Assembly: GCF_026230175.1 (NCBI RefSeq)
Contig: NZ_CP104208.1
Span: 3,224,001-3,288,000, forward strand
Direction of reading: 5' to 3'
Source of the DNA: Desulfovibrio mangrovi
GTDB lineage: Bacteria > Desulfobacterota > Desulfovibrionia > Desulfovibrionales > Desulfovibrionaceae
DNA length: 64,000 nt
The notes under the pieces are model-generated. The model saw nothing but the letters and a program-made list of their open reading frames with translations, was not told the origin of the DNA and did not search any database. Within the stretch, counting starts at the first letter, position 1. The number at the start of each line of letters is the position of its first letter. The position numbers were made by a program, and so were the translations under genes. Shown here in pieces: positions 2,262 to 11,970 of this stretch.

Positions 2262-3293
2262 CTACACCAACCCCCAACTCATGGGAGTTCCGGCTTTTAT
2301 TGCGGATGTTGCAGCCTTGCCCAGTATCTGATCCAGATATCGCGGGGGCATGCCGTAGCCCGGCCTGATGGATCGTACGTTGTCAGGGGTAAAAACCTCG
2401 CCTGCCTTCATGTCTTTGACCACAAATAGCGAGCGACGAAATACGGTGCTTTCTTGCTGCTTTTCTGTCAGCTCGTAAGAGACTCGGCCGATCGCCTGCT
2501 CCACCGTCCGCACATCGTGCACCAGTTGCTTGAGTTCGTACGGTTCCATGCTGAAGGCTGCGTCCGGGCCGCCATCTGCACGGGCGAGCGTGAAGTGTTT
2601 TTCAATGACGGTTGCGCCAAGAGCCACTGCAGCTACCGCCACCGCGCTGCCCAGTGTATGATCCGAAAGGCCGACGGGGCATCCGAAGGCCTCGGCCATA
2701 TGCGGAATGGTGAGCAGGTTCGCTTCATTTGCAGGGGCGGGATAGGCAGAGGTGCATTTGAGCAGGGTCAGGTCTGTCGTGCCGTTCTCCCGCAACGTCC
2801 GGACGGCTTCGTCTATTTCGGCGAGCGAAGCCATGCCCGTGGATAGAATGACCGGCTTGCCCGTGCCGGCAACCTTTTTGAGCAACGGGATGTCCACCGC
2901 CTCAAACGAGGCTATCTTGTGTCTGGACACGCCGTATTTTTCCAGAAAATCAACAGCCGTTGCATCGAACGGCGTAGAAAAGCAGTCCATGCCCAAATCT
3001 TTTGCGCAGGCCATGAGGCGTGGCGTCCATTCCCACGGGGTATGCGCCTCTTGATAGAGATCGTGCAGCGTGCGGCCGTCCCACAGGGTGCCCTTTATGC
3101 GAAAGTATTCATTGTCGCAGGGGATGGTCATGGTGTCTGCGGTATACGTCTGCAGCTTCACTGCGTCAGCGCCAGCCTCGGCAGCGGCGCGGATGATGGC
3201 CTCCGCGCGTTCAACAGAGCCTTTGTGGTTGGCGGATACTTCCGCGATGATACATGTGCGGAGGGGTGAATTGCCGGTTGCAGGGGTGCTCAT
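2262..3293 (-). CDS. pseI: pseudaminic acid synthase PseI
   Basis: The 343-aa protein belongs to the NeuB/PseI family, which condenses phosphoenolpyruvate with the 2,4-diamino-2,4,6-trideoxy-altrose derivative to make pseudaminic acid. The N-terminal TIM barrel includes IIAEVSANHKGSVERA, DAVKLQTYTADTMT, STPFD, LSTGMASLAEI and VGLSDHTLGS, all typical of the family. The last 60 or so residues form a SAF (antifreeze-like) domain starting near RRSLFVVKDMKAGE. PseI rather than NeuB is supported by the surrounding pseB, pseC, pseF and pseG. It is the last gene of the operon and overlaps the upstream formyltransferase-like gene by 4 bases, so translation is probably coupled. Confidence 0.93.
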   Translation of the reverse strand: MSTPATGNSPLRTCIIAEVSANHKGSVERAEAIIRAAAEAGADAVKLQTYTADTMTIPCDNEYFRIKGTLWDGRTLHDLYQEAHTPWEWTPRLMACAKDLGMDCFSTPFDATAVDFLEKYGVSRHKIASFEAVDIPLLKKVAGTGKPVILSTGMASLAEIDEAVRTLRENGTTDLTLLKCTSAYPAPANEANLLTIPHMAEAFGCPVGLSDHTLGSAVAVAAVALGATVIEKHFTLARADGGPDAAFSMEPYELKQLVHDVRTVEQAIGRVSYELTEKQQESTVFRRSLFVVKDMKAGEVFTPDNVRSIRPGYGMPPRYLDQILGKAATSAIKAGTPMSWGLV

Positions 3294-3979
3294 GAATCAT
3301 TCTCTTTTACAGTGATGGTGACATCCGCTTCAATTTTCCCATGCCGCAAGGAGGCCTTTCTGAATTCCATTCTAAAGCGATCCGTTTCGAGAAATGCTGC
3401 GGGATAGCCCTCTGCATCAAGCATGCGGATGTGGTCGAACAGAGCCTCAAGAGAAGGGAGCTTGCTGATATTGCTTTGCTCCGGTTTCCGCCTTTCAAAG
3501 AACGTTGGCTCTCCGCTTTGGGGTACGGGCTGGGGCGAGGTGTCGATGATCTCGACGATCATCTCCTCCATGATCGATGCCGCCCGTAAAAAAATCTCTT
3601 CCGCACTTCCATGTAATGACAGCGGGCGCTTCATGTAAACCGGCCCGGCATCCACCTCTTCCGTGCAGCGCAGGGCAGACAACTTTGTCTCCGTGAAGCC
3701 TCTTTGTATCAGGTTCTGCAAAGGGCTGCCGCCGCGCCCGAATGGCAGGTCGGTCATATGAAAAATGATGGTTTCATAGCGGGACCATATGGTTTCCGGA
3801 ATGATCCATGACCAGTGGGGAACAAAAATGCTTCTGGGGTTTATGGCGTCAAAAGGGAACGCTCGCAGCTCCTCGGGGGTGGATACGGTGTAAAAGACAT
3901 GCCCCGTCGCCTGTTGAAGGCGGTGCGCCATGGATGAAAGCCACGGCCTTGATGCTGCCAGAACAAAGTTGTGTGGCAC
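3290..3979 (-). CDS. formyltransferase-like protein with altered active site (second formyltransferase)
   Basis: The start is taken as GTG at 3979, which shares one base with the TAG stop of the upstream gene and has AGGGGG just upstream; an ATG further upstream lies inside that gene. The resulting protein has 229 aa. The core FHMTDLPFGRGGSPLQNLI followed by EEVDAGPVYM matches the methionyl-tRNA/sugar formyltransferase fold (HxxxLPxxxG then DxG). His74 and Asp110 of the usual Asn-His-Asp triad are present, but the Asn position (two before the His) is Ile72. This may mean different chemistry, such as another acyl donor, or a non-catalytic role. It probably modifies the Pse precursor, because it lies between a deacetylase gene and pseI. 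Confidence 0.75.
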   Translation of the reverse strand: MPHNFVLAASRPWLSSMAHRLQQATGHVFYTVSTPEELRAFPFDAINPRSIFVPHWSWIIPETIWSRYETIIFHMTDLPFGRGGSPLQNLIQRGFTETKLSALRCTEEVDAGPVYMKRPLSLHGSAEEIFLRAASIMEEMIVEIIDTSPQPVPQSGEPTFFERRKPEQSNISKLPSLEALFDHIRMLDAEGYPAAFLETDRFRMEFRKASLRHGKIEADVTITVKENDS

Positions 3980-4692
3980 TATACCATCCCCCTGCACAGC
4001 ATGAATCCCTCTGCCGCGTTGCAACCGGACTGTGCTCCGCGCAGCTTTGCCAGATGGTGCACTCCCTCATGGCTTCTGGGGTGCGGAAACGGGCGCATCT
4101 CTGTTTCATAGGCGTGCAGCGCATTCATTTTTGCTTCCAGCGTGCCAGAGATATCAACAAACAGGTTGGGCACGAAGGGGGAATGTATGCTGCTTCCGGA
4201 GTATTCCGTGCTGGATGGAACCTCGAAGGCCATAATATTCTTCACATAGGCCCCCGGAAGAGGGCGGAACGCCGTCAGCACAGCATGGTGCGTCAGCCTG
4301 TGGTCAATGTTCAGATCGCCGAAATGGTGGGTGAATACTGTATCCGGTCTGATCTCATTACCTATTTCTTCAATGTATTTGACAAGTTCGATGAGGGGGA
4401 GGCTGTCAAAGCGATTGTCCGGAAATCCTGAAAAGCCTCTGTCGGCAGGGGTGATAACCTGAGAGATGCCAAGGATGTCTCCGGCGGTGCGGGCACTGGC
4501 AAAGGCGCGCTCTCTTTCACGGTCCGCCAATGGGCCTTGCTCGGATGCTATGCGGGCAAGCGGGCCTTCTCCCAACAGCAGCACGGAAACCCGCGTCCCT
4601 TGAGCCGCAAGGCGCGCCATGGTGCCCCCGCATCCGAGGATCTCGTCATCCGGATGGGCGGCAATTACCATCACATTCTGCCATGTCGTCAT
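3979..4692 (-). CDS. PIG-L (LmbE-like) family deacetylase
   Basis: The 237-aa protein carries the PIG-L zinc motif AHPDDE at residues 12-17 and the second motif HHFGDLNIDHRLTHH near residue 120, so both metal-binding sites look intact. Family members remove N-acetyl groups from amino sugars, for example GlcNAc-inositol or bacillithiol precursors. Here the substrate is probably an acetamido sugar of the pseudaminic-acid pathway, judging only from the position between two formyltransferase-like genes. AGGTGG precedes the ATG at 4692. About 93 non-coding bases separate it from the upstream formyltransferase gene, the largest gap in the operon. Deacetylases are not part of the standard PseBCHGIF pathway. 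Confidence 0.85.
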   Translation of the reverse strand: MTTWQNVMVIAAHPDDEILGCGGTMARLAAQGTRVSVLLLGEGPLARIASEQGPLADRERERAFASARTAGDILGISQVITPADRGFSGFPDNRFDSLPLIELVKYIEEIGNEIRPDTVFTHHFGDLNIDHRLTHHAVLTAFRPLPGAYVKNIMAFEVPSSTEYSGSSIHSPFVPNLFVDISGTLEAKMNALHAYETEMRPFPHPRSHEGVHHLAKLRGAQSGCNAAEGFMLCRGMV

Positions 4693-4785
4693 GAATCACC
4701 CACCTGCGTTTATCCTGTGCGTTACGTCTCTTATGCGCCTGAGAAGTCGAGTGGTCTTAATCGTATCGAGGTTCAACGACGCCAG

Positions 4786-5370
4786 CTAGCGTGTCTTTCT
4801 TGCACGTCCCAGCAGGGCTGATACGGGAGTATCCCAGCCCTTTTCCTTCAGCAACTCCATGAAGGGAGTCTTGTCCTTGGCGAGGTGGAAAGAGCCCGCT
4901 CCCCTCTGTGGCCTTGCCTCAATGCCGCCATCCAGCAAATCTCCGACATTCTCGATGAACAGGCGTTCCATCTCGCGCGAAAGCTTGTCGTAGGATGTTG
5001 CCAGCGTGTCTTTCGTGGTATCGATTTCGACCTGTTTCTGTAAAAGAATGTCGCCGGTATCAATGCCTTCATCAATTCGATGTATGGTAACGCCCCTTGG
5101 CGTTTCCTCAAGATATGACCATAGATTCGGATCGTATCCTCTGTTCCAGGGCAGGTACGAAATGTGAAGATTGATGAGCCTGCCTTGAAAAAAGTCTATC
5201 GCGTTTTTCTTGATAATCCGTTTGTATCGATAGCTTATTCCGAACTCAATAGCGTTGGCTTGCAGCCACGAAACAGTGAAGCCCCCTTCCGTTTGAAGGA
5301 CTTCATGCTTCAGCTCTGCAAGTGCGTTCTCAATTGCAGGGCAAGGGGGGCCTAAGAAAAGGATTTTCAC
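4786..5370 (-). CDS. sugar N-formyltransferase-like protein (candidate replacement for PseH)
   Basis: The 194-aa protein is a compact formyltransferase domain without the C-terminal OB domain of methionyl-tRNA formyltransferase. The whole catalytic triad is visible: Asn67 and His69 in INLHISYLPWNRG, and Asp104 in GIDTGDIL. Translation starts at GTG 5370, and GTGA overlaps the TGA stop of pseG. In the standard pathway PseH would N-acetylate the 4-amino group made by PseC. No acetyltransferase is found here, so formylation of that amino group using N10-formyl-tetrahydrofolate is the simplest inference. Sugar formyltransferases acting on dTDP- or UDP-4-amino sugars are known. The exact substrate is not proven by sequence. 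Confidence 0.8.
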   Translation of the reverse strand: MKILFLGPPCPAIENALAELKHEVLQTEGGFTVSWLQANAIEFGISYRYKRIIKKNAIDFFQGRLINLHISYLPWNRGYDPNLWSYLEETPRGVTIHRIDEGIDTGDILLQKQVEIDTTKDTLATSYDKLSREMERLFIENVGDLLDGGIEARPQRGAGSFHLAKDKTPFMELLKEKGWDTPVSALLGRARKTR

Positions 5371-6371
5371 GTTCCCAACACCTCAAGAACTGCTTGCGCA
5401 CCTGCGCAGCCTACCTGCGCAGCCATTGCCTTGCGTCTTTCATGATTGTTTGATTGCAGCATCCGGCCGAATGCCTCTCTGGAAAAGCGCGGAGCCAGAG
5501 TGCTTTCGGCCAGCTTTGCAACAATCCCCTTCTGGTTGTCGGCCACCTCGACAGTCAGAAAAGGCACCCGCAGGCAGCACAGCTCCCAACAGGTGCTGCC
5601 TCCTGCCGATATGCACAGGTCCGTATCCAGCAGCAGGGCGGGTATATCTTCCACATTCTGCAACAGCTCAATATCGGCAGGGCAGTCGCGCAGGCTGGCC
5701 CGAATGGTTTCTGCCGGCATGGCTCCGGTAATTACCCGTAATGTGCGCCCCTGCATCTCTGGTACACCTAAGCATGGCACCAGTTCACGCAAGTGTTCCG
5801 AAAAATCGCCGCCCCCAAGCGTGAGCAATATCTTCTGCGGGGTTTCCGGCAATTCTCTTGCGTCTGCCTTTGCACGGGCAGCGGCAAATTCGGGACGCAA
5901 GAGGAGGTAGCGTAGGCCGAGAAGTTTCTGCCCGATATTCCCCTTGTAGGCGTAGTCTTCTGCGCCAAGGTTCTGGTTCAGCAGTATGTCGCAATGGTAT
6001 TCGGGCAAATGGTTGTAGTCGTCAATGACCAGCAGCTTGTATCCGGCATTGCAGACCGCCTGCTGACAGGCGTGGTCAAAGTGGTAGCCGTCCAGCACCA
6101 CCCGGCAACGGCTCGCCTCCACGCCCTGTGCGGATAGTGCCAGATGCTGAAGGAGTGTTTCAGGATCTTCTTTTCCGTGAGGCTGTCCGTCCAGAAATAC
6201 GACTTCGAGGTTTTCCTTTGAAAGCCGTTCCCGCAACCAGCGGATGTCGATGCGACAGGCCATGCAGACATCAAGGCCTTGGGCCTTGGCGGCCAGAGCC
6301 AGTGCCATGCACCGCATGACATGTCCGGCTCCCATGTGCGGGGGTGCGTCGGCGCGGATGATCAACCGCAT
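5367..6371 (-). CDS. pseG: UDP-2,4-diacetamido-2,4,6-trideoxy-altrose hydrolase PseG
   Basis: The 334-aa protein starts at ATG 6371, overlapping the last base of the pseF stop (TGATG). The N-terminus RADAPPHMGAGHVMRCMALA is the characteristic PseG motif with the catalytic His in GxGHxxRC. The GT-B fold C-terminus carries LTLGGGDFSE and CISAGGSTCWELCCLRVP, a nucleotide-binding GGSTxWE motif. PseG releases UDP from the diamino sugar nucleotide before PseI acts. It would have to accept whatever acyl group the downstream formyltransferase installs at N4. Confidence 0.92.
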   Translation of the reverse strand: MRLIIRADAPPHMGAGHVMRCMALALAAKAQGLDVCMACRIDIRWLRERLSKENLEVVFLDGQPHGKEDPETLLQHLALSAQGVEASRCRVVLDGYHFDHACQQAVCNAGYKLLVIDDYNHLPEYHCDILLNQNLGAEDYAYKGNIGQKLLGLRYLLLRPEFAAARAKADARELPETPQKILLTLGGGDFSEHLRELVPCLGVPEMQGRTLRVITGAMPAETIRASLRDCPADIELLQNVEDIPALLLDTDLCISAGGSTCWELCCLRVPFLTVEVADNQKGIVAKLAESTLAPRFSREAFGRMLQSNNHERRKAMAAQVGCAGAQAVLEVLGT

Positions 6372-7078
6372 CAGCACAGCCCTTGGGATCTTGCGACTAA
6401 TTCGGCAAAGGCCCAATCCTCTTCCGTATCAATATCCACGGCAACGGATCGTGGCACAACGATGGCGCTCTTGCTCAAGGGAAGAAAGCTGGTGCCGCCT
6501 TCGCGCAGGAAGGCCTCCGTGGAGAACCAGTAGAAGAGTCCGAGATCATGGTATGACGGCTTGATGTCCTGTGTGCGGACAGAAACAAACTCGGGTTGGC
6601 GATAAAAGACTGTGCCGTCATCGCTGAATTGCAGCGAACGTTCTATGGGGTGGGCATACTCTGCAACAGCCATGACCAGTTCACAGCGTCTGGTTGACAG
6701 TTGCTCCAGCCCCTTCCGGAGAAACTGTGGCGTTACAAGCGCCGAAGTGCCGTACAGACAGCAGCAGTATTGCGGCAGCGTTCCGCTGCTCTGCCGCAGG
6801 CGCTGCAAGGCGTGAAGCAACACGTCTGCCGTTGTGGAAAAGTCATCGGCCAGGTGCGCCGGACGCAGAAAGGGGATTGAAGCGCCGCACGCTTCTGCCA
6901 CCCTGGCGATCTCTGCATCCTCAGTGGACATGATCACAGAGGAAAAAACGCCTGACTCCAGAGCCGCCCTTATGGGCCATTCGACCATCGGGCGTCCGCA
7001 AAAGGGCCGGATGTTCTTGCGCGGCACACGCTTTGACCCGCCACGGGCCATAACAATGCAAAGGGCGTTCTGCGTCAT
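6371..7078 (-). CDS. pseF: pseudaminic acid cytidylyltransferase PseF
   Basis: The 235-aa protein has the CMP-sialate synthetase family N-terminus ARGGSKRVPRKNIRPFCGRPMVEWPI, which binds CTP, followed by STEDAEIARVAEACGA and LRPAHLADDFSTTADV. It activates pseudaminic acid to the CMP-sugar used by glycosyltransferases, typically for flagellin or surface polysaccharide. It lies 3 bases after pseC and overlaps pseG by one base. The pathway assignment rests on the flanking pse genes; sequence alone could also fit legionaminic acid or sialic acid activation. Confidence 0.92.
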   Translation of the reverse strand: MTQNALCIVMARGGSKRVPRKNIRPFCGRPMVEWPIRAALESGVFSSVIMSTEDAEIARVAEACGASIPFLRPAHLADDFSTTADVLLHALQRLRQSSGTLPQYCCCLYGTSALVTPQFLRKGLEQLSTRRCELVMAVAEYAHPIERSLQFSDDGTVFYRQPEFVSVRTQDIKPSYHDLGLFYWFSTEAFLREGGTSFLPLSKSAIVVPRSVAVDIDTEEDWAFAELVARSQGLC

Positions 7079-7081
7079 CGT

Positions 7082-8194
7082 TTATTGTCTCTCAAGAAGC
7101 TGCACTACCCGTTCTATTTCGTCACGTTGCATTCCTGCCCACATGGGCAGGGTCAGAATCTCCGCATACGCAGCCTCCGCCACCGGGCAAAGGCCTTTCG
7201 CATAGCCCAGCTCCCGGTAGTACGGATGCAGGTAGACCGGGATGTAGTGGACGTTGACGCCAATCTGCGCGTCGCGCATCCGTTTGAAAACGGCATCCCG
7301 TTCAGGCGTGCGCACCACATACAGGTGATATGCATGCCGAACTCCATCGCGGCGGGCCAGAGGAGCAACTGCCGTGCCCGCAAAGGCTGCATCATACAGG
7401 GTGGCGAGAGCGTTTCGTATTTCTATCCAGCCATCAAGTTTCTTGAGCTGGCTGCTGCCAAGGGCGCATTGAAAGTCGGTGATCCGATAGTTGTACCCCA
7501 GCTCAACCATTTCATAATACCAGCCGCCCATCTTCTCGCGTTCTGCCGCCGTGGTGGTGATGCCGTGCCCTCTGAAGGCCCGCATGCGTGCAGCAAGGGC
7601 TGCATCGTTGGTGACAGCCATGCCGCCTTCGCCCGTGGTGATGTGCTTCACCGGATGGAAGCTGAAAACGGTCACATCTGCCAGCGTGCCCACCTTGCGG
7701 CCGTTGTATTCGCCGCCTATGGCGTGGCAGGCGTCCGCCACAAGCGCCAGTCCGTGCCTGTCAGCAATGCGGCGCAGCGCATCCCAGTTGCAGGGCTGAC
7801 CGGCGTAATCCACGCCTATGATGGCCTTGGTGCGGGGGGTAATGGCTGCTTCCACTGCCTGCGGGTCAATGAGAAGGGTGTCTGCCTCCACATCTGCGAA
7901 TACGGTATTTCCGCCGCAGTAGAGAACAGCATTGGACGTGGCGGCAAAGGTGATGGCGGGAACAATGACTTCATCCCCTTCCTTGATGCCCAAGGCATGC
8001 ATGGCCGCGTGCAGAGCCGCGGTTCCGCTGGAGACGGCCAAGCCGTGAGCCGTGCCGGTGTATGCACATATGTCAGATTCAAAGAGTTCCACCGCCGGAC
8101 CGGTGGTCAGAAAGTCAGAGCGCAGCGCCTGCACAACGGCTGCGATGTCCTCGTCGTCGATCATCTGGTGACCGTATGGCAGGAACGTATTCAT
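7082..8194 (-). CDS. pseC: UDP-4-amino-4,6-dideoxy-N-acetyl-L-altrosamine transaminase PseC
   Basis: The start is ATG 8194, one base after the pseB stop; a longer frame reaches into pseB. The 370-aa protein is a DegT/DnrJ/EryC1-type PLP aminotransferase. It begins MNTFLPYGHQMIDDEDIAAV and has the SSGTAALHAA phosphate-binding turn and the Schiff-base lysine in FSFHPVKHITTGEGG. PseC places the 4-amino group on the PseB product. That amino group is acetylated by PseH in known pathways. Here no PseH is present, which makes the downstream formyltransferase genes important. Confidence 0.93.
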   Translation of the reverse strand: MNTFLPYGHQMIDDEDIAAVVQALRSDFLTTGPAVELFESDICAYTGTAHGLAVSSGTAALHAAMHALGIKEGDEVIVPAITFAATSNAVLYCGGNTVFADVEADTLLIDPQAVEAAITPRTKAIIGVDYAGQPCNWDALRRIADRHGLALVADACHAIGGEYNGRKVGTLADVTVFSFHPVKHITTGEGGMAVTNDAALAARMRAFRGHGITTTAAEREKMGGWYYEMVELGYNYRITDFQCALGSSQLKKLDGWIEIRNALATLYDAAFAGTAVAPLARRDGVRHAYHLYVVRTPERDAVFKRMRDAQIGVNVHYIPVYLHPYYRELGYAKGLCPVAEAAYAEILTLPMWAGMQRDEIERVVQLLERQ

Positions 8195-8195
8195 A

Positions 8196-9179
8196 TTATT
8201 GCACGTCAAAGCCTTGCTTGCGCAGGATTGTCCTGAGTTCCGGCGCTGAAAGCCATGTTTCGTTCGTGCTGGAATTGTACTCAAAGCCATCGGCAACGGG
8301 CGTACCTTCCGGTCCCCGGTAGCGGAACGTTTCCGGCTTGATGACGTAGTAATCGCCGATATCGATGGTATGTCTGCTGTCTTCGGCGGTAATCATGGTT
8401 TCATGCAGCTTTTCACCGGGGCGTATGCCCACTTGGACCGTTTCCATTCCGGGGGCGATGGCTTCGGCAAGGTCGGTAATGCGCATGCTGGGAATTTTGG
8501 GAACAAAGACTTCTCCGCCTCCGGCCTGTTCAAAGGCGTTCAGCACCATTCTGACGCTTTCTTCGAGGGTGATCCAGAAGCGCGTCATGCGGTTGTCCGT
8601 GATGGACAGGGGGCCGCCCTCATCACGTCTCTGTATGAAAAACGGAATGACCGAACCGCGTGACCCCATGACGTTTCCGTAACGCACGACAGAGTAGACG
8701 GTGTCGCATCCTGTGAAGGCGTTGGCAGCCACAAAGAGCTTGTCGGAACACAGCTTGGTGGCACCGTAGAGATTGACCGGCGCAACAGCCTTGTCTGTGG
8801 AAAGGGCCACAACCTTTTGCACGCCAAGGTCTGCGGCGGCGTTGACGATGTTCTCTGCACCGTAAATGTTGGTGCGTATGCATTCCGTGGGGTTGTATTC
8901 GGCTGCGGGCACCTGCTTGAGCGCGGCTGCGTGTATGACATAGTCAACACCGCGAAAGGCCCGGTATAAGCGTTCCTTGTCCCGTACGTCGCCAATGAAG
9001 TAGCGCATGCAACGATACGTTTCGGGAGAGAACCGCTGAGCCATCTCAAACTGCTTCAGCTCGTCGCGGCTGAACACAATCAGGCGGTTGGGCTTGTATG
9101 ATTGCAAAACAAGCTCCACGCACTTCTTGCCGAAAGACCCGGTACCACCTGTAATGAGGATGGTTTTTCCATCAAACAT
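8196..9179 (-). CDS. pseB: UDP-N-acetylglucosamine 4,6-dehydratase (inverting) PseB
   Basis: The start is ATG 9179, with AAGAGGAC about 6 bases upstream; longer upstream coding is possible but looks non-native. The 327-aa protein is a short-chain dehydrogenase/reductase. It has the NAD(P) motif TGGTGSFG at residues 10-17, FSRDELKQFEM, LSTDKAVAPVNLYGATK (YxxxK) and the C-terminal FRYRGPEGTP region typical of PseB/FlaA1. It performs C5-inverting 4,6-dehydration of UDP-GlcNAc, the committed step to pseudaminic acid. It is the first gene of an eight-gene operon, and its promoter must lie in the 9180-9674 gap. Confidence 0.94.
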   Translation of the reverse strand: MFDGKTILITGGTGSFGKKCVELVLQSYKPNRLIVFSRDELKQFEMAQRFSPETYRCMRYFIGDVRDKERLYRAFRGVDYVIHAAALKQVPAAEYNPTECIRTNIYGAENIVNAAADLGVQKVVALSTDKAVAPVNLYGATKLCSDKLFVAANAFTGCDTVYSVVRYGNVMGSRGSVIPFFIQRRDEGGPLSITDNRMTRFWITLEESVRMVLNAFEQAGGGEVFVPKIPSMRITDLAEAIAPGMETVQVGIRPGEKLHETMITAEDSRHTIDIGDYYVIKPETFRYRGPEGTPVADGFEYNSSTNETWLSAPELRTILRKQGFDVQ

Positions 9180-9674: not shown

Positions 9675-11309
9675 CTATCGTTTGGCGCGTTCGAGCAGTT
9701 TGCCCAGCCTGTTCTGGAGCATCTCCGGCGTGAAGGGCTTTGGTAGGAAGGACGACACGCCGCTTTTGCGGGCAAGAGTTGCCTGTGATCTGCCGGATTC
9801 CGTGGTGGCCATCAGCACGGGGGTGGTGGCGTACAGGGGCATGGCGCGGAGTTTTTCCGTGAACTGAATACCGTCCATGACGGGCATGTTCATGTCCACG
9901 ACGATAACGTCGAAGGTGCCATTAAGCGCCTCCACGATATCCAGCGCATCGCGTCCGTGTTCAGCGAGGGTGACGTCAAAGCCTATGATGGCACCATGGG
10001 TGCGGTAGAAGTTGCGCATGGCCGTGGAGTCGTCAATGGCGAGCAACTTTGGCCTGTCTGCTTCATCCCGGGGCATGCCCATGCGGATGGCGGCCTCGTC
10101 TTTACGGGCCAGTTCTCCTTGGCATTGTGCAAGGGCATCAAGAAAGACCTGCATGGTCTCCGTGTTTTTGCTTTTGAGAATAAGGCTGACGAGAATGCGG
10201 CCCGCTACGGGGTCTGCGTAGAGATGCGGGAAAAGTTTGACGGCATGCGCTTCCATGACGGCCTGCAGAATGCGTTGAGCCTGTTGATCTCGCGCGGCCA
10301 TGCGGTCGGTGATGATTTCGAGAAAGCGTTTCCCCACGACTGCCGAGGTAAGGGATTCCAGTGCGTGCACCACGGCCAGCAGGGTGGTCGGTTCCTGTTC
10401 TATCGGCAGGGCATCGGTAAGTGCCACAAGGCTTTTTACGCCCGGGGTACGCCCCAGCGCTTCATAGATGGCAAAGCCCACGTTGGGGTCGGAGGCTGCG
10501 CCCTGTTCCAGCGCGTTGATGAGCGGTTCGGCCGAGGCCTTGTGCGCGATGTCGCGCAGGGCATTGGCCGCCATGATGCGGCAGTCCTTGTCGGAATCGA
10601 GCAACGCCGGGCTTACATGCGGAATGGCTGTTACACCGCACTGGACAAAGGTTTCCTGAACGATTCGTCTGGCTTCGGGGTTGCGGTGGTGTATGAACCG
10701 CGCCAGTTCGCTAAGGGCAGGCGCGTGCGCGGATGCGCCGATGCGTCCGAGACCTTCGATGGCGGCCCAGGTGGTGATGTCGCAAACGGCGTAGCGTTCT
10801 TCGGTTTCATTGGCCGCAACGATGTCCGAGAGTGCGGGAATGCTCCCCGTATCTCCGAGCATGCCCAGATACTGTATGCACAGGGATGAGACCACGGGGT
10901 CTGCGTTGCGCATGTGGTCGCGGAAGACGGGAATGGCTTCCAGAGCCCCGATGCGGCCGAGGGCGGTCAGGGTCTCGTGCAGTGAGGCCGAATCCGATGT
11001 CTTGGAGAGCTGGTTGACCAGCACCGGAGCTGCCTCATCCAGCTGCATCTCGCCTGCAAGGTCCCTGCATAGTGCGGCAAATGGGAGATGCGGGTGCTCC
11101 AGACCGCTGATTATGCTCTCTGGGGCCTTCTGCAGCAGGGTGCGGATGGAATTGCGCACCATGGTGTCAGCGGCCGTGTCGCCCGTGGGCTCCTGAAACA
11201 GGGGCATGAGGGCGGCAAGGGCTTCTCCGGAAGGTTCGGTCTGCAGCTTGTGCAGGGCCTGAGCCTGTTCCAGAAAATCGAGGGCGCGGAAAGATTCTGC
11301 AAAGGACAT
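9675..11309 (-). CDS. HEAT-repeat protein fused to a CheY-like receiver domain
   Basis: Residues 1 to about 410 of this 544-aa protein consist of HEAT-like alpha-helical repeats (for example LTALGRIGALEAIPVFRDHM and LGMLGDTGSIPALSDIV). A receiver domain follows at about 420-540: KLLAIDDSTAMRNFYRTHG, the phosphoacceptor Asp in VIVVDMNMPVMDG, the Thr in MATTES and the Lys in FLPKPF. There is no output domain after the receiver, so the HEAT region is probably the protein-binding output. The next gene, cheX, encodes a probable phosphatase for receiver domains and lies 35 bases downstream in transcription terms reversed, that is, cheX is upstream of this gene in the same operon. A role in chemotaxis or motility signalling is inferred. 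Confidence 0.88.
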   Translation of the reverse strand: MSFAESFRALDFLEQAQALHKLQTEPSGEALAALMPLFQEPTGDTAADTMVRNSIRTLLQKAPESIISGLEHPHLPFAALCRDLAGEMQLDEAAPVLVNQLSKTSDSASLHETLTALGRIGALEAIPVFRDHMRNADPVVSSLCIQYLGMLGDTGSIPALSDIVAANETEERYAVCDITTWAAIEGLGRIGASAHAPALSELARFIHHRNPEARRIVQETFVQCGVTAIPHVSPALLDSDKDCRIMAANALRDIAHKASAEPLINALEQGAASDPNVGFAIYEALGRTPGVKSLVALTDALPIEQEPTTLLAVVHALESLTSAVVGKRFLEIITDRMAARDQQAQRILQAVMEAHAVKLFPHLYADPVAGRILVSLILKSKNTETMQVFLDALAQCQGELARKDEAAIRMGMPRDEADRPKLLAIDDSTAMRNFYRTHGAIIGFDVTLAEHGRDALDIVEALNGTFDVIVVDMNMPVMDGIQFTEKLRAMPLYATTPVLMATTESGRSQATLARKSGVSSFLPKPFTPEMLQNRLGKLLERAKR

Positions 11310-11348: not shown

Positions 11349-11813
11349 TTATTCGAAGCAGAACTCTACGGTAAAGTCCCCGTTGGCAGTGGAGAAGGGG
11401 ATGGCCATTATCGGGCTTTTGGTCACGTGTGTGATGGAATGGTTGTCACCCATGATGACGGAAGGAGTGGCCCCCTGAAAGACCATGCCCATTTCGGCAA
11501 GGCCGGCACGGGCCTGCCCGGAAATCATGTTGGTGACTTCGCCCACGGCATCCTTGGTGTCTTGAATAAGGTCCTGAATGTCGTCGCCGAGCATGGCTTT
11601 GACAAGGGCGATGGCGCACTTCTTGGTAAAGGTGACCGAGATGCTTCCGTTCTTGTAGCCTGTAATGCCGATAACGGCGGAAACATCGCCCTGAGCTACC
11701 GTATTCTTTTTCACATAGGGCTTTCCGGGGACGGGATTGATACCTGCCATGGTGGAAAGAACATTGACGGTGGCGCTGATAAAGGGCTTTGCGACCTCGA
11801 TTCCGGTGCTCAT
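11349..11813 (-). CDS. cheX: CheX-family chemotaxis phosphatase
   Basis: The 154-aa protein (MSTGIEVAKPFISATVNVL) matches the CheC/CheX/FliY phosphatase family. The signature Glu and Asn are visible in GEVTNMISGQA, where ExxN inserts into the active site of phosphorylated CheY. A single signature is expected for CheX. The start at 11813 is chosen over a frame 6 codons longer because AAGGAG lies 9 bases upstream. It is probably co-transcribed with the HEAT-receiver gene, and that receiver is its most likely substrate, although other CheY proteins are also possible. Confidence 0.88.
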   Translation of the reverse strand: MSTGIEVAKPFISATVNVLSTMAGINPVPGKPYVKKNTVAQGDVSAVIGITGYKNGSISVTFTKKCAIALVKAMLGDDIQDLIQDTKDAVGEVTNMISGQARAGLAEMGMVFQGATPSVIMGDNHSITHVTKSPIMAIPFSTANGDFTVEFCFE

Positions 11814-11970
11814 CTGGAGGACTCCTTGCATTCCTGACAGTAGTAACTTGTTGCTGTATCTCGGCTAAATATCACGCAACATTCTTTCTGAGATAATACA
11901 TAAATCGTACTGTAGATGCCTGAGCCCGTAAAGTGAATTATTGTTTGCCTGTGCCCGTTGCCGGGGACTC

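What the first reader, a model, noticed from the sequence alone, without database searches (positions are those of the whole stretch)
2262..9179. Pseudaminic-acid operon without PseH, carrying two formyltransferases and a deacetylase
PseB, PseC, PseF, PseG and PseI are all present in a coupled operon, but there is no GNAT-type PseH. Between PseG and PseI lie a formyltransferase with a full Asn-His-Asp triad, a PIG-L deacetylase and a second formyltransferase-like protein. Formyl would replace acetyl at the former 4-amino group (C7 of pseudaminic acid), and the deacetylase could free the C5 nitrogen for a second acyl change. N-formyl pseudaminic acids exist in some bacterial glycans, but this three-gene combination is unusual.
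Basis: partly seen in the sequence, partly recalled or inferred. Interest (0 to 1): 0.75.

Follow-up and report, generated by a model that had tools for sequence, protein, structure and literature searches.

The report
Double-formylated pseudaminic acid sugar operon
This bacterial operon makes a sialic-acid-like surface sugar in which a known enzyme (PseJ) puts a formyl group where most such pathways put acetyl, and a little-described but widespread enzyme pair probably also exchanges the sugar's other acetyl group, perhaps for a second formyl.

Summary
PseB, PseC, PseF, PseG and PseI pass their curated cut-offs. Neither a PseH model nor a profile of neighbouring PseH-like GNATs finds a full-length PseH in the one-contig 3.95 Mb genome. 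The 194-aa formyltransferase matches PseJ, a solved enzyme (6ci2/6ci4), with the Asn-His-Asp triad. It takes PseH's place, so this half is known.

The less known half is the PIG-L deacetylase plus the second formyltransferase-like protein (FT2, nearest structure 1zgh). This pair recurs in PseI clusters of many phyla: PIG-L accompanies FT2 in 77 of the 80 loci examined (of 526 found), and the three misses lie on short or cut contigs. In the order, PIG-L is in 8 of 8 PseI clusters with FT2 and 3 of 46 without. The pair occurs with GNAT, PseJ or other enzymes in the C7 slot, so it most likely acts at C5: deacetylation, then re-acylation, probably formylation. FT2 and a sister family (FT3) keep His and Asp, but the catalytic Asn was absent in every aligned row, so formyl transfer by FT2 is not secure. 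The three-gene set is uncommon, not unique: I saw it in three other genomes.

Verdict: new variant of a known kind. Predicted product: 5,7-di-N-formyl-pseudaminic acid, untested.

The parts
8196..9179 (-). PseB, UDP-GlcNAc 4,6-dehydratase (5-inverting)
   Evidence: TIGR03589 500.3 bits, cut-off 407.75; ATG at 9179
7082..8194 (-). PseC, C4 aminotransferase
   Evidence: TIGR03588 459.1 bits, cut-off 423.5
6371..7078 (-). PseF, CMP-pseudaminic acid synthetase
   Evidence: TIGR03584 258.7 bits, cut-off 205.7
5367..6371 (-). PseG, UDP-sugar hydrolase (no GNAT fused)
   Evidence: TIGR03590 181.3 bits, cut-off 153.55; ATG 6371 overlaps the PseF stop
4786..5370 (-). PseJ (FT1), formyltransferase expected to formylate the C4 amine of the PseC product (future C7)
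   Evidence: phmmer to PDB 6ci2/6ci4 'formyltransferase PseJ' E 1.6e-48 over residues 2-192; N, H, D present
4693..4785 (-). 93-bp spacer between PseJ and PIG-L; possible remnant of a PseH N-terminus (weak)
   Evidence: 12-residue match to the syntenic region of L158, reached by 4 of 2000 shuffles; not significant against a set of 65 GNATs
3979..4692 (-). PIG-L/LmbE-type N-deacetylase, the only PIG-L match of the genome
   Evidence: PF02585 82.4 bits; HPDD and H131 invariant in 12 of 12 rows aligned; only match in the genome
3290..3979 (-). FT2, formyltransferase-fold protein without the catalytic Asn; GTG start
2262..3293 (-). PseI, pseudaminic acid synthase
   Evidence: TIGR03586 497.3 bits, cut-off 340.25

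Best explanation
The operon makes a doubly altered pseudaminic acid. Shown by sequence: the complete PseB-C-G-I-F backbone, no PseH, a PseJ, a PIG-L with its motif intact, and an Asn-less formyltransferase-fold protein FT2. Inferred: PseB and PseC make UDP-4-amino-4,6-dideoxy-L-AltNAc; PseJ formylates its 4-amine from N10-formyl-THF instead of PseH acetylating it; PIG-L removes the N-acetyl that came from GlcNAc (hexose C2, future C5); FT2 re-acylates that amine, most likely with formyl; PseG, PseI and PseF then give CMP-Pse5Fo7Fo. The stage at which PIG-L and FT2 act is open. The likely target is flagellin, through the one Maf-type protein found in the genome, or another surface glycan.
Against: FT2 lacks the catalytic Asn in 90 of 90 rows, so formyl transfer is not assured. 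11 of 80 loci have no recognised C7 enzyme within 1 kb of PseG or FT2 (L017, L020, L021, L024, L026, L027, L044, L053, L058, L076, L096): L021 has a GNAT further off, L020 is a 5.9-kb contig, L017 and L026 have a methyltransferase there and L024 an ATP-grasp protein; FT2 could act at C7 in some. One genome (G231) has the pair with no Pse genes within about 8 kb, while its PseI cluster lies elsewhere and has FT3. PIG-L occurs without FT2 in 3 of 46 clusters, so the coupling is not absolute. The GNATs are called PseH-type by position; only 14 of 80 genomes pass the PseH model's cut-off. There are no biochemical or mass data. That PseJ acts on the PseC product is recalled, not read.
Confidence: 0.5

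Rival explanations
1. PIG-L frees the C5 amine, but FT2 attaches something other than formyl, or uses another donor: the formyltransferase fold with His and Asp but no Asn has been recruited for different acyl chemistry.
For: Asn absent in 90 of 90 FT2 rows and 22 of 22 rows of the sister family FT3, while the triad-type rows keep it 9 of 9; FT2 and FT3 form one clade apart from PseJ and the one Fmt used (support 0.984); where FT2 is missing, PIG-L adjoins methyltransferase or WbqC-like genes in 3 of 3 clusters.
Against: FT2 still matches formyltransferase profiles (TIGR00460 E 1.7e-8), keeps the His and the Asp, and its model superposes on folate-dependent formyltransferases; I saw no sign of another donor, but did not look for one beyond family and fold searches.
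Confidence: 0.25
2. The pair acts on something other than the Pse biosynthetic intermediate, such as a sugar of the glycan carrier or a different amino sugar, and the operon's Pse is simply Pse5Ac7Fo.
For: One orphan pair without Pse genes nearby (G231); PIG-L enzymes act on many N-acetyl sugars (general knowledge).
Against: 72 of 80 loci carry PseI, 73 PseG, and 77 at least one of the two on the fetched stretch; in the window the pair sits inside the operon and FT2 overlaps PseI by 4 bases; it recurs in many phyla.
Confidence: 0.15
3. PIG-L and FT2 remodel C7 rather than C5: PIG-L removes an acetyl from C7 and FT2 formylates it, with PseJ doing the same job directly.
For: 11 of 80 loci show no recognised C7 enzyme near PseG or FT2.
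Against: 69 of 80 loci have a separate acetyl- or formyltransferase-type gene within 1 kb of PseG or FT2; with PseJ present, as in the window, no C7 acetyl would be there to remove.
Confidence: 0.1

Closest known systems
PseJ (PDB 6ci2, 6ci4, 6ci5, 6edk)
   Same: FT1 matches it over residues 2-192, E 1.6e-48; N-H-D triad
   Different: No difference in kind found. The source organism and the published activity on the PseC product are recalled; the paper is not held
1zgh, deposited as methionyl-tRNA formyltransferase of Clostridium thermocellum
   Different: The deposited name does not fit FT2, which lacks the Asn while the genome has a separate Fmt-like gene. I found no function in print for this family in the searches made
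5-N-formyl-legionaminic acid pathway of Halorubrum sp. PV6 (PMC6137143)
   Same: Formyl on the C5 nitrogen of a nonulosonic acid; a possible formyltransferase gene in the cluster
   Different: Legionaminic, not pseudaminic; the gene gave a 953-bp RT-PCR product, longer than FT2; the word deacetylase does not occur in the main text
7-N-formyl-Pse of Pseudoalteromonas distincta KMM 638 and of P. aeruginosa 1244 pilin
   Same: 7-N-formyl-Pse is a known natural sugar (reference title seen; formyl on N7 seen in passages)
   Different: C5 carries acetyl in the first; 3-hydroxybutyryl in the second (recalled)
Aeromonas flagellin glycosylation islands with deacetylase genes beside pse genes (PMC7874193)
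   Same: Deacetylase genes between pseF and pseG, or pseH and pseI, and in one strain a GlcNAc-PI de-N-acetylase next to pseI (passages)
   Different: No word beginning with formyl occurs in the main text

Membership tests
Pseudaminic acid (CMP-Pse) pathway | PseB, PseC, PseG, PseI, PseF equivalogs | tested here: met
   All five over their NCBIfam cut-offs
Pseudaminic acid (CMP-Pse) pathway | PseH GNAT acetyltransferase (canonical Pse5Ac7Ac) | tested here: not met
   TIGR03585 21.4 bits of 93.1; order-specific GNAT profile at most 18.5 bits, partial
PseJ | Full-length similarity to solved PseJ, nearer than to other formyltransferases | tested here: met
   E 1.6e-48; next best the linear gramicidin synthase subunit A, E 8e-32
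PseJ | Asn-His-Asp catalytic triad | tested here: met
   INLH and DTGD in the window; 9 of 9 rows, which hold the window twice and L065, not PseJ-like
PseJ | Formylates UDP-4-amino-4,6-dideoxy-L-AltNAc | not testable with these tools
   Needs an enzyme assay
Methionyl-tRNA formyltransferase (the Pfam/PDB label of FT2) | Over the TIGR00460 cut-off | tested here: not met
   33.9 bits of 201.5
Methionyl-tRNA formyltransferase (the Pfam/PDB label of FT2) | Catalytic Asn two residues before His | tested here: not met
   Ile in the window; Asn 0 of 90 rows; the genome's own Fmt-like protein has INVH
N10-formyl-THF-dependent formyltransferase fold | Fold | tested here: met
N10-formyl-THF-dependent formyltransferase fold | Conserved His and Asp of the active site | tested here: met
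   90 of 90 rows each
PIG-L/LmbE deacetylase | HPDD and the downstream His metal ligands | tested here: met
   H13-P14-D15-D16 and H131 invariant in 12 of 12 rows; that these bind the metal is recalled
PIG-L/LmbE deacetylase | Deacetylates a Pse intermediate | not testable with these tools
   Needs an enzyme assay

The most novel reading that the evidence does not exclude
PIG-L and FT2 form a widespread, undescribed C5 acyl-exchange cassette of pseudaminic acid synthesis. FT2 and its sister FT3 are a new class of sugar formyltransferase that works without the canonical Asn. With PseJ the cassette makes 5,7-di-N-formyl-pseudaminic acid, a nonulosonic acid that I recall from no glycan.
Probability: 0.4. 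Interest if true: 0.65.

Novelty: new variant of a known kind. Interest (0 to 1): 0.5.

Why it matters
Relatives of FT2 are numerous (526 stretches in a collection of 84,980 species; of the 80 examined, 72 have PseI on the fetched stretch) and where I saw a label it read 'methionyl-tRNA formyltransferase'. They would gain a testable role: exchange of the C5 acyl group of pseudaminic acid. That would help to predict C5 and C7 substituents of bacterial sialic-acid-like sugars from gene order, and it poses a clean enzymology question: how a formyltransferase fold works without its Asn.

Tried and rejected
PseH absence by TIGR03585 alone was judged insufficient: only 14 of 80 FT2-bearing genomes pass that cut-off, although 54 of 80 loci carry a GNAT within 1 kb of PseG or FT2. 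I therefore repeated it with an order-specific profile A3. I ran no separate positive control for A3.

PseH relic in the window's spacer 4693-4785: a 12-residue match to L158 that 4 of 2000 shuffles reach, but against 65 other GNATs 280 of 300 shuffles reach the best score. Kept only as a weak hint; the L158 target was chosen after reading both stretches.

Searches with FT2 of the plasmid collection (2 records: a Synechococcus plasmid at 50% identity and Nonomuraea at 26%) and the phage collection (none) gave no organism with a Pse structure known to me. The 274-Da flagellin sugar of Shewanella oneidensis as a lead: the paper's main text has no word beginning with formyl or deacetyl; dropped. 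A Pseudoalteromonas distincta genome paper: unrelated formyl and deacetylase terms; dropped. The Clostridium and Vibrionaceae nonulosonic-acid papers have no formyl term.

Rows not counted as PseJ: L065 (nearer the dTDP-4-amino-4,6-dideoxyglucose formyltransferase profile, 127 bits; still counted among the 3 triad formyltransferases); weak FT1 hits in L168 (46 bits) and L095 (54 bits); G271 (200 bits) on a 6.4-kb contig without PseI, and weaker whole-genome hits such as G191 at 116 bits. Counts by gene order use HMMs built here from the same loci and hand-set score limits, and only genes on the FT2 (or PseI) strand. The fold search with FT2 showed a shared fold but, as its notes say, a fold shows no function; PseJ itself was not among the rows shown.
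Full report
1. What is there. Eight genes run on the minus strand from 9179 to 2262: PseB, PseC, PseF, PseG, FT1, PIG-L, FT2, PseI. The five backbone enzymes pass their NCBIfam equivalog cut-offs. Four of seven junctions overlap by 1 or 4 bases, two have gaps of 1 and 3 bases; only FT1 and PIG-L are further apart, by 93 bp. The operon's G+C (0.565) is like that of the window beyond it (0.574); FT1 is lowest at 0.501.

2. PseH is absent. The genome is one contig of 3,947,083 bases, 99.96% complete. TIGR03585 gives at best 21.4 bits against a cut-off of 93.1; 13 of 14 control genomes also give a hit at E 0.001 or better, one of them over the cut-off. Because that model is insensitive (14 of 80 FT2-bearing genomes over the cut-off, against 54 of 80 loci with a GNAT within 1 kb of PseG or FT2), I built a profile from 13 PseH-like GNATs of the same order; its best hit here is a partial match of 18.5 bits. 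I ran no separate positive control for that profile.

3. FT1 is PseJ. It matches PDB 6ci2 and 6ci4, 'formyltransferase PseJ', over residues 2-192 at E 1.6e-48; the next best are chains of linear gramicidin synthase subunit A, from E 8e-32. Asn, His and Asp are all present. That PseJ formylates the PseC product I recall from a 2018 ACS Chem Biol paper, which the library does not hold. The order is very probably Desulfovibrionales: two genomes of the same family have contig lengths equal to those of Desulfovibrio cuneatus and a Desulfovibrio MAG. There, 5 of 54 PseI clusters have a PseJ-type gene: L157 (the window), L158, L159, L161, L162. So the C7-formyl half of the finding is a new member of a known kind.

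5. The pair is independent of the C7 enzyme. Within 1 kb of PseG or FT2 in the 80 loci: GNAT only 45, GNAT plus FT3 9, FT3 only 12, triad formyltransferase 3 (L056 and L059 PseJ-like, L065 not), none 11. FT3 is another formyltransferase-fold family; in 12 of its 21 loci it comes directly after PseG, in 7 after PseG and a GNAT, and in L036 and L089 otherwise. Since the C4 amine (C7) seems to be served separately in 69 of 80, the pair most likely works on the other nitrogen, the GlcNAc-derived N-acetyl (C5). In the three order clusters with PIG-L but no FT2 the gene next to PIG-L is a methyltransferase (L185, L174) or a WbqC-family protein (L210), as if PIG-L frees an amine that different partners then decorate.

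6. The weak point. In FT2 the catalytic His and Asp are present in 90 of 90 aligned rows and the Asn in none; in FT3 the same holds for 22 of 22; triad-type rows have all three in 9 of 9 (rows include the window twice in FT2 and FT1, two further genomes twice in FT2, and L065 in FT1). FT2 and FT3 together form a clade (support 0.984; FT2 alone 0.789) apart from PseJ and the single Fmt used. Thus formyl transfer by FT2 is an inference from fold, remaining residues and company.

7. Precedent and print. 5-N-formyl-legionaminic acid is known from Halorubrum sp. PV6, with a possible formyltransferase gene (953-bp RT-PCR product) and no mention of a deacetylase in the main text (PMC6137143, passages). 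Pse with 5-N-lactyl and 7-N-acetyl is reported from Psychrobacter marincola (PMC7281560, abstract and passages), whose reference list names 7-formamido-Pse of Pseudoalteromonas distincta. Aeromonas flagellin islands hold deacetylase genes beside pse genes (PMC7874193, passages). Geobacillus islands of types II-IV have PseC, F, G and I but no PseH, and two type III strains have a formyltransferase gene (PMC5109656, passages), perhaps a PseJ. I found no paper that describes PIG-L and FT2 together in Pse clusters; the searches were made, in an open-licence library only, and of the long listings I opened only the papers named.

8. How special is this operon. PseJ, PIG-L and FT2 together occur in the window and in L158 among the 54 order clusters and in L056 and L059 among the 80 distant loci. 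In L158 pseJ ends in a perfect (AG)28 tract and is followed by a GNAT reading frame that starts out of frame, which looks like a PseH beside PseJ that is either decaying or switched. In the window the spacer at the same place has a 12-residue resemblance to it, statistically weak.

9. Use of the sugar. The genome has one PF01973 (MptE-like; Maf by recall) protein at 711 kb, compatible with flagellin glycosylation, and weaker PseI-family matches elsewhere that look like other nonulosonate synthases, so it may make more than one such sugar. Which surface structure carries this Pse was not tested.

10. Verdict. Observation confirmed; interpretation partly supported; C7 formylation by PseJ very likely (about 0.9); C5 exchange by PIG-L and FT2 likely (about 0.6); formyl as the new C5 group a little under even (about 0.45).

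Noticed in passing
L158:7821-7876 and 7882-8349 (G045, same family): Perfect (AG)28 tract at the 3' end of pseJ, followed by a PseH-like GNAT frame that is out of frame at its start: a possible phase switch or a decaying pseH.
   Followed up: partly
L067:9260-9982, L057:4963-5652 and 19 other of 80 loci: FT3: a second Asn-less formyltransferase-fold family near PseG, without a GNAT within 1 kb in 12 of 21 loci; for the one member searched the nearest solved proteins score about 43 bits.
   Followed up: partly
L167:7818-9216 (G231): FT2 and PIG-L as an isolated pair without Pse genes in the 18 kb fetched; the genome's PseI cluster (L213) has FT3 instead.
   Followed up: partly
L185:9931-10920, L174:9794-10477, L210:9173-9907: In the 3 order clusters with PIG-L but no FT2, a methyltransferase or a WbqC-family protein adjoins PIG-L.
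   Followed up: partly
L017:8511-9281, L026:9179-9979, L024:8567-9517: Clusters without a recognised C7 enzyme near PseG or FT2 carry a methyltransferase or an ATP-grasp protein between PseG and the pair.
   Followed up: partly
window 9675-11309 and 11349-11831: HEAT-repeat plus response-regulator protein and a CheX next to the Pse operon.
   Followed up: no
G000:C1:711328-711837: The only PF01973 (MptE/Maf-type) match of the genome, far from the Pse operon.
   Followed up: no
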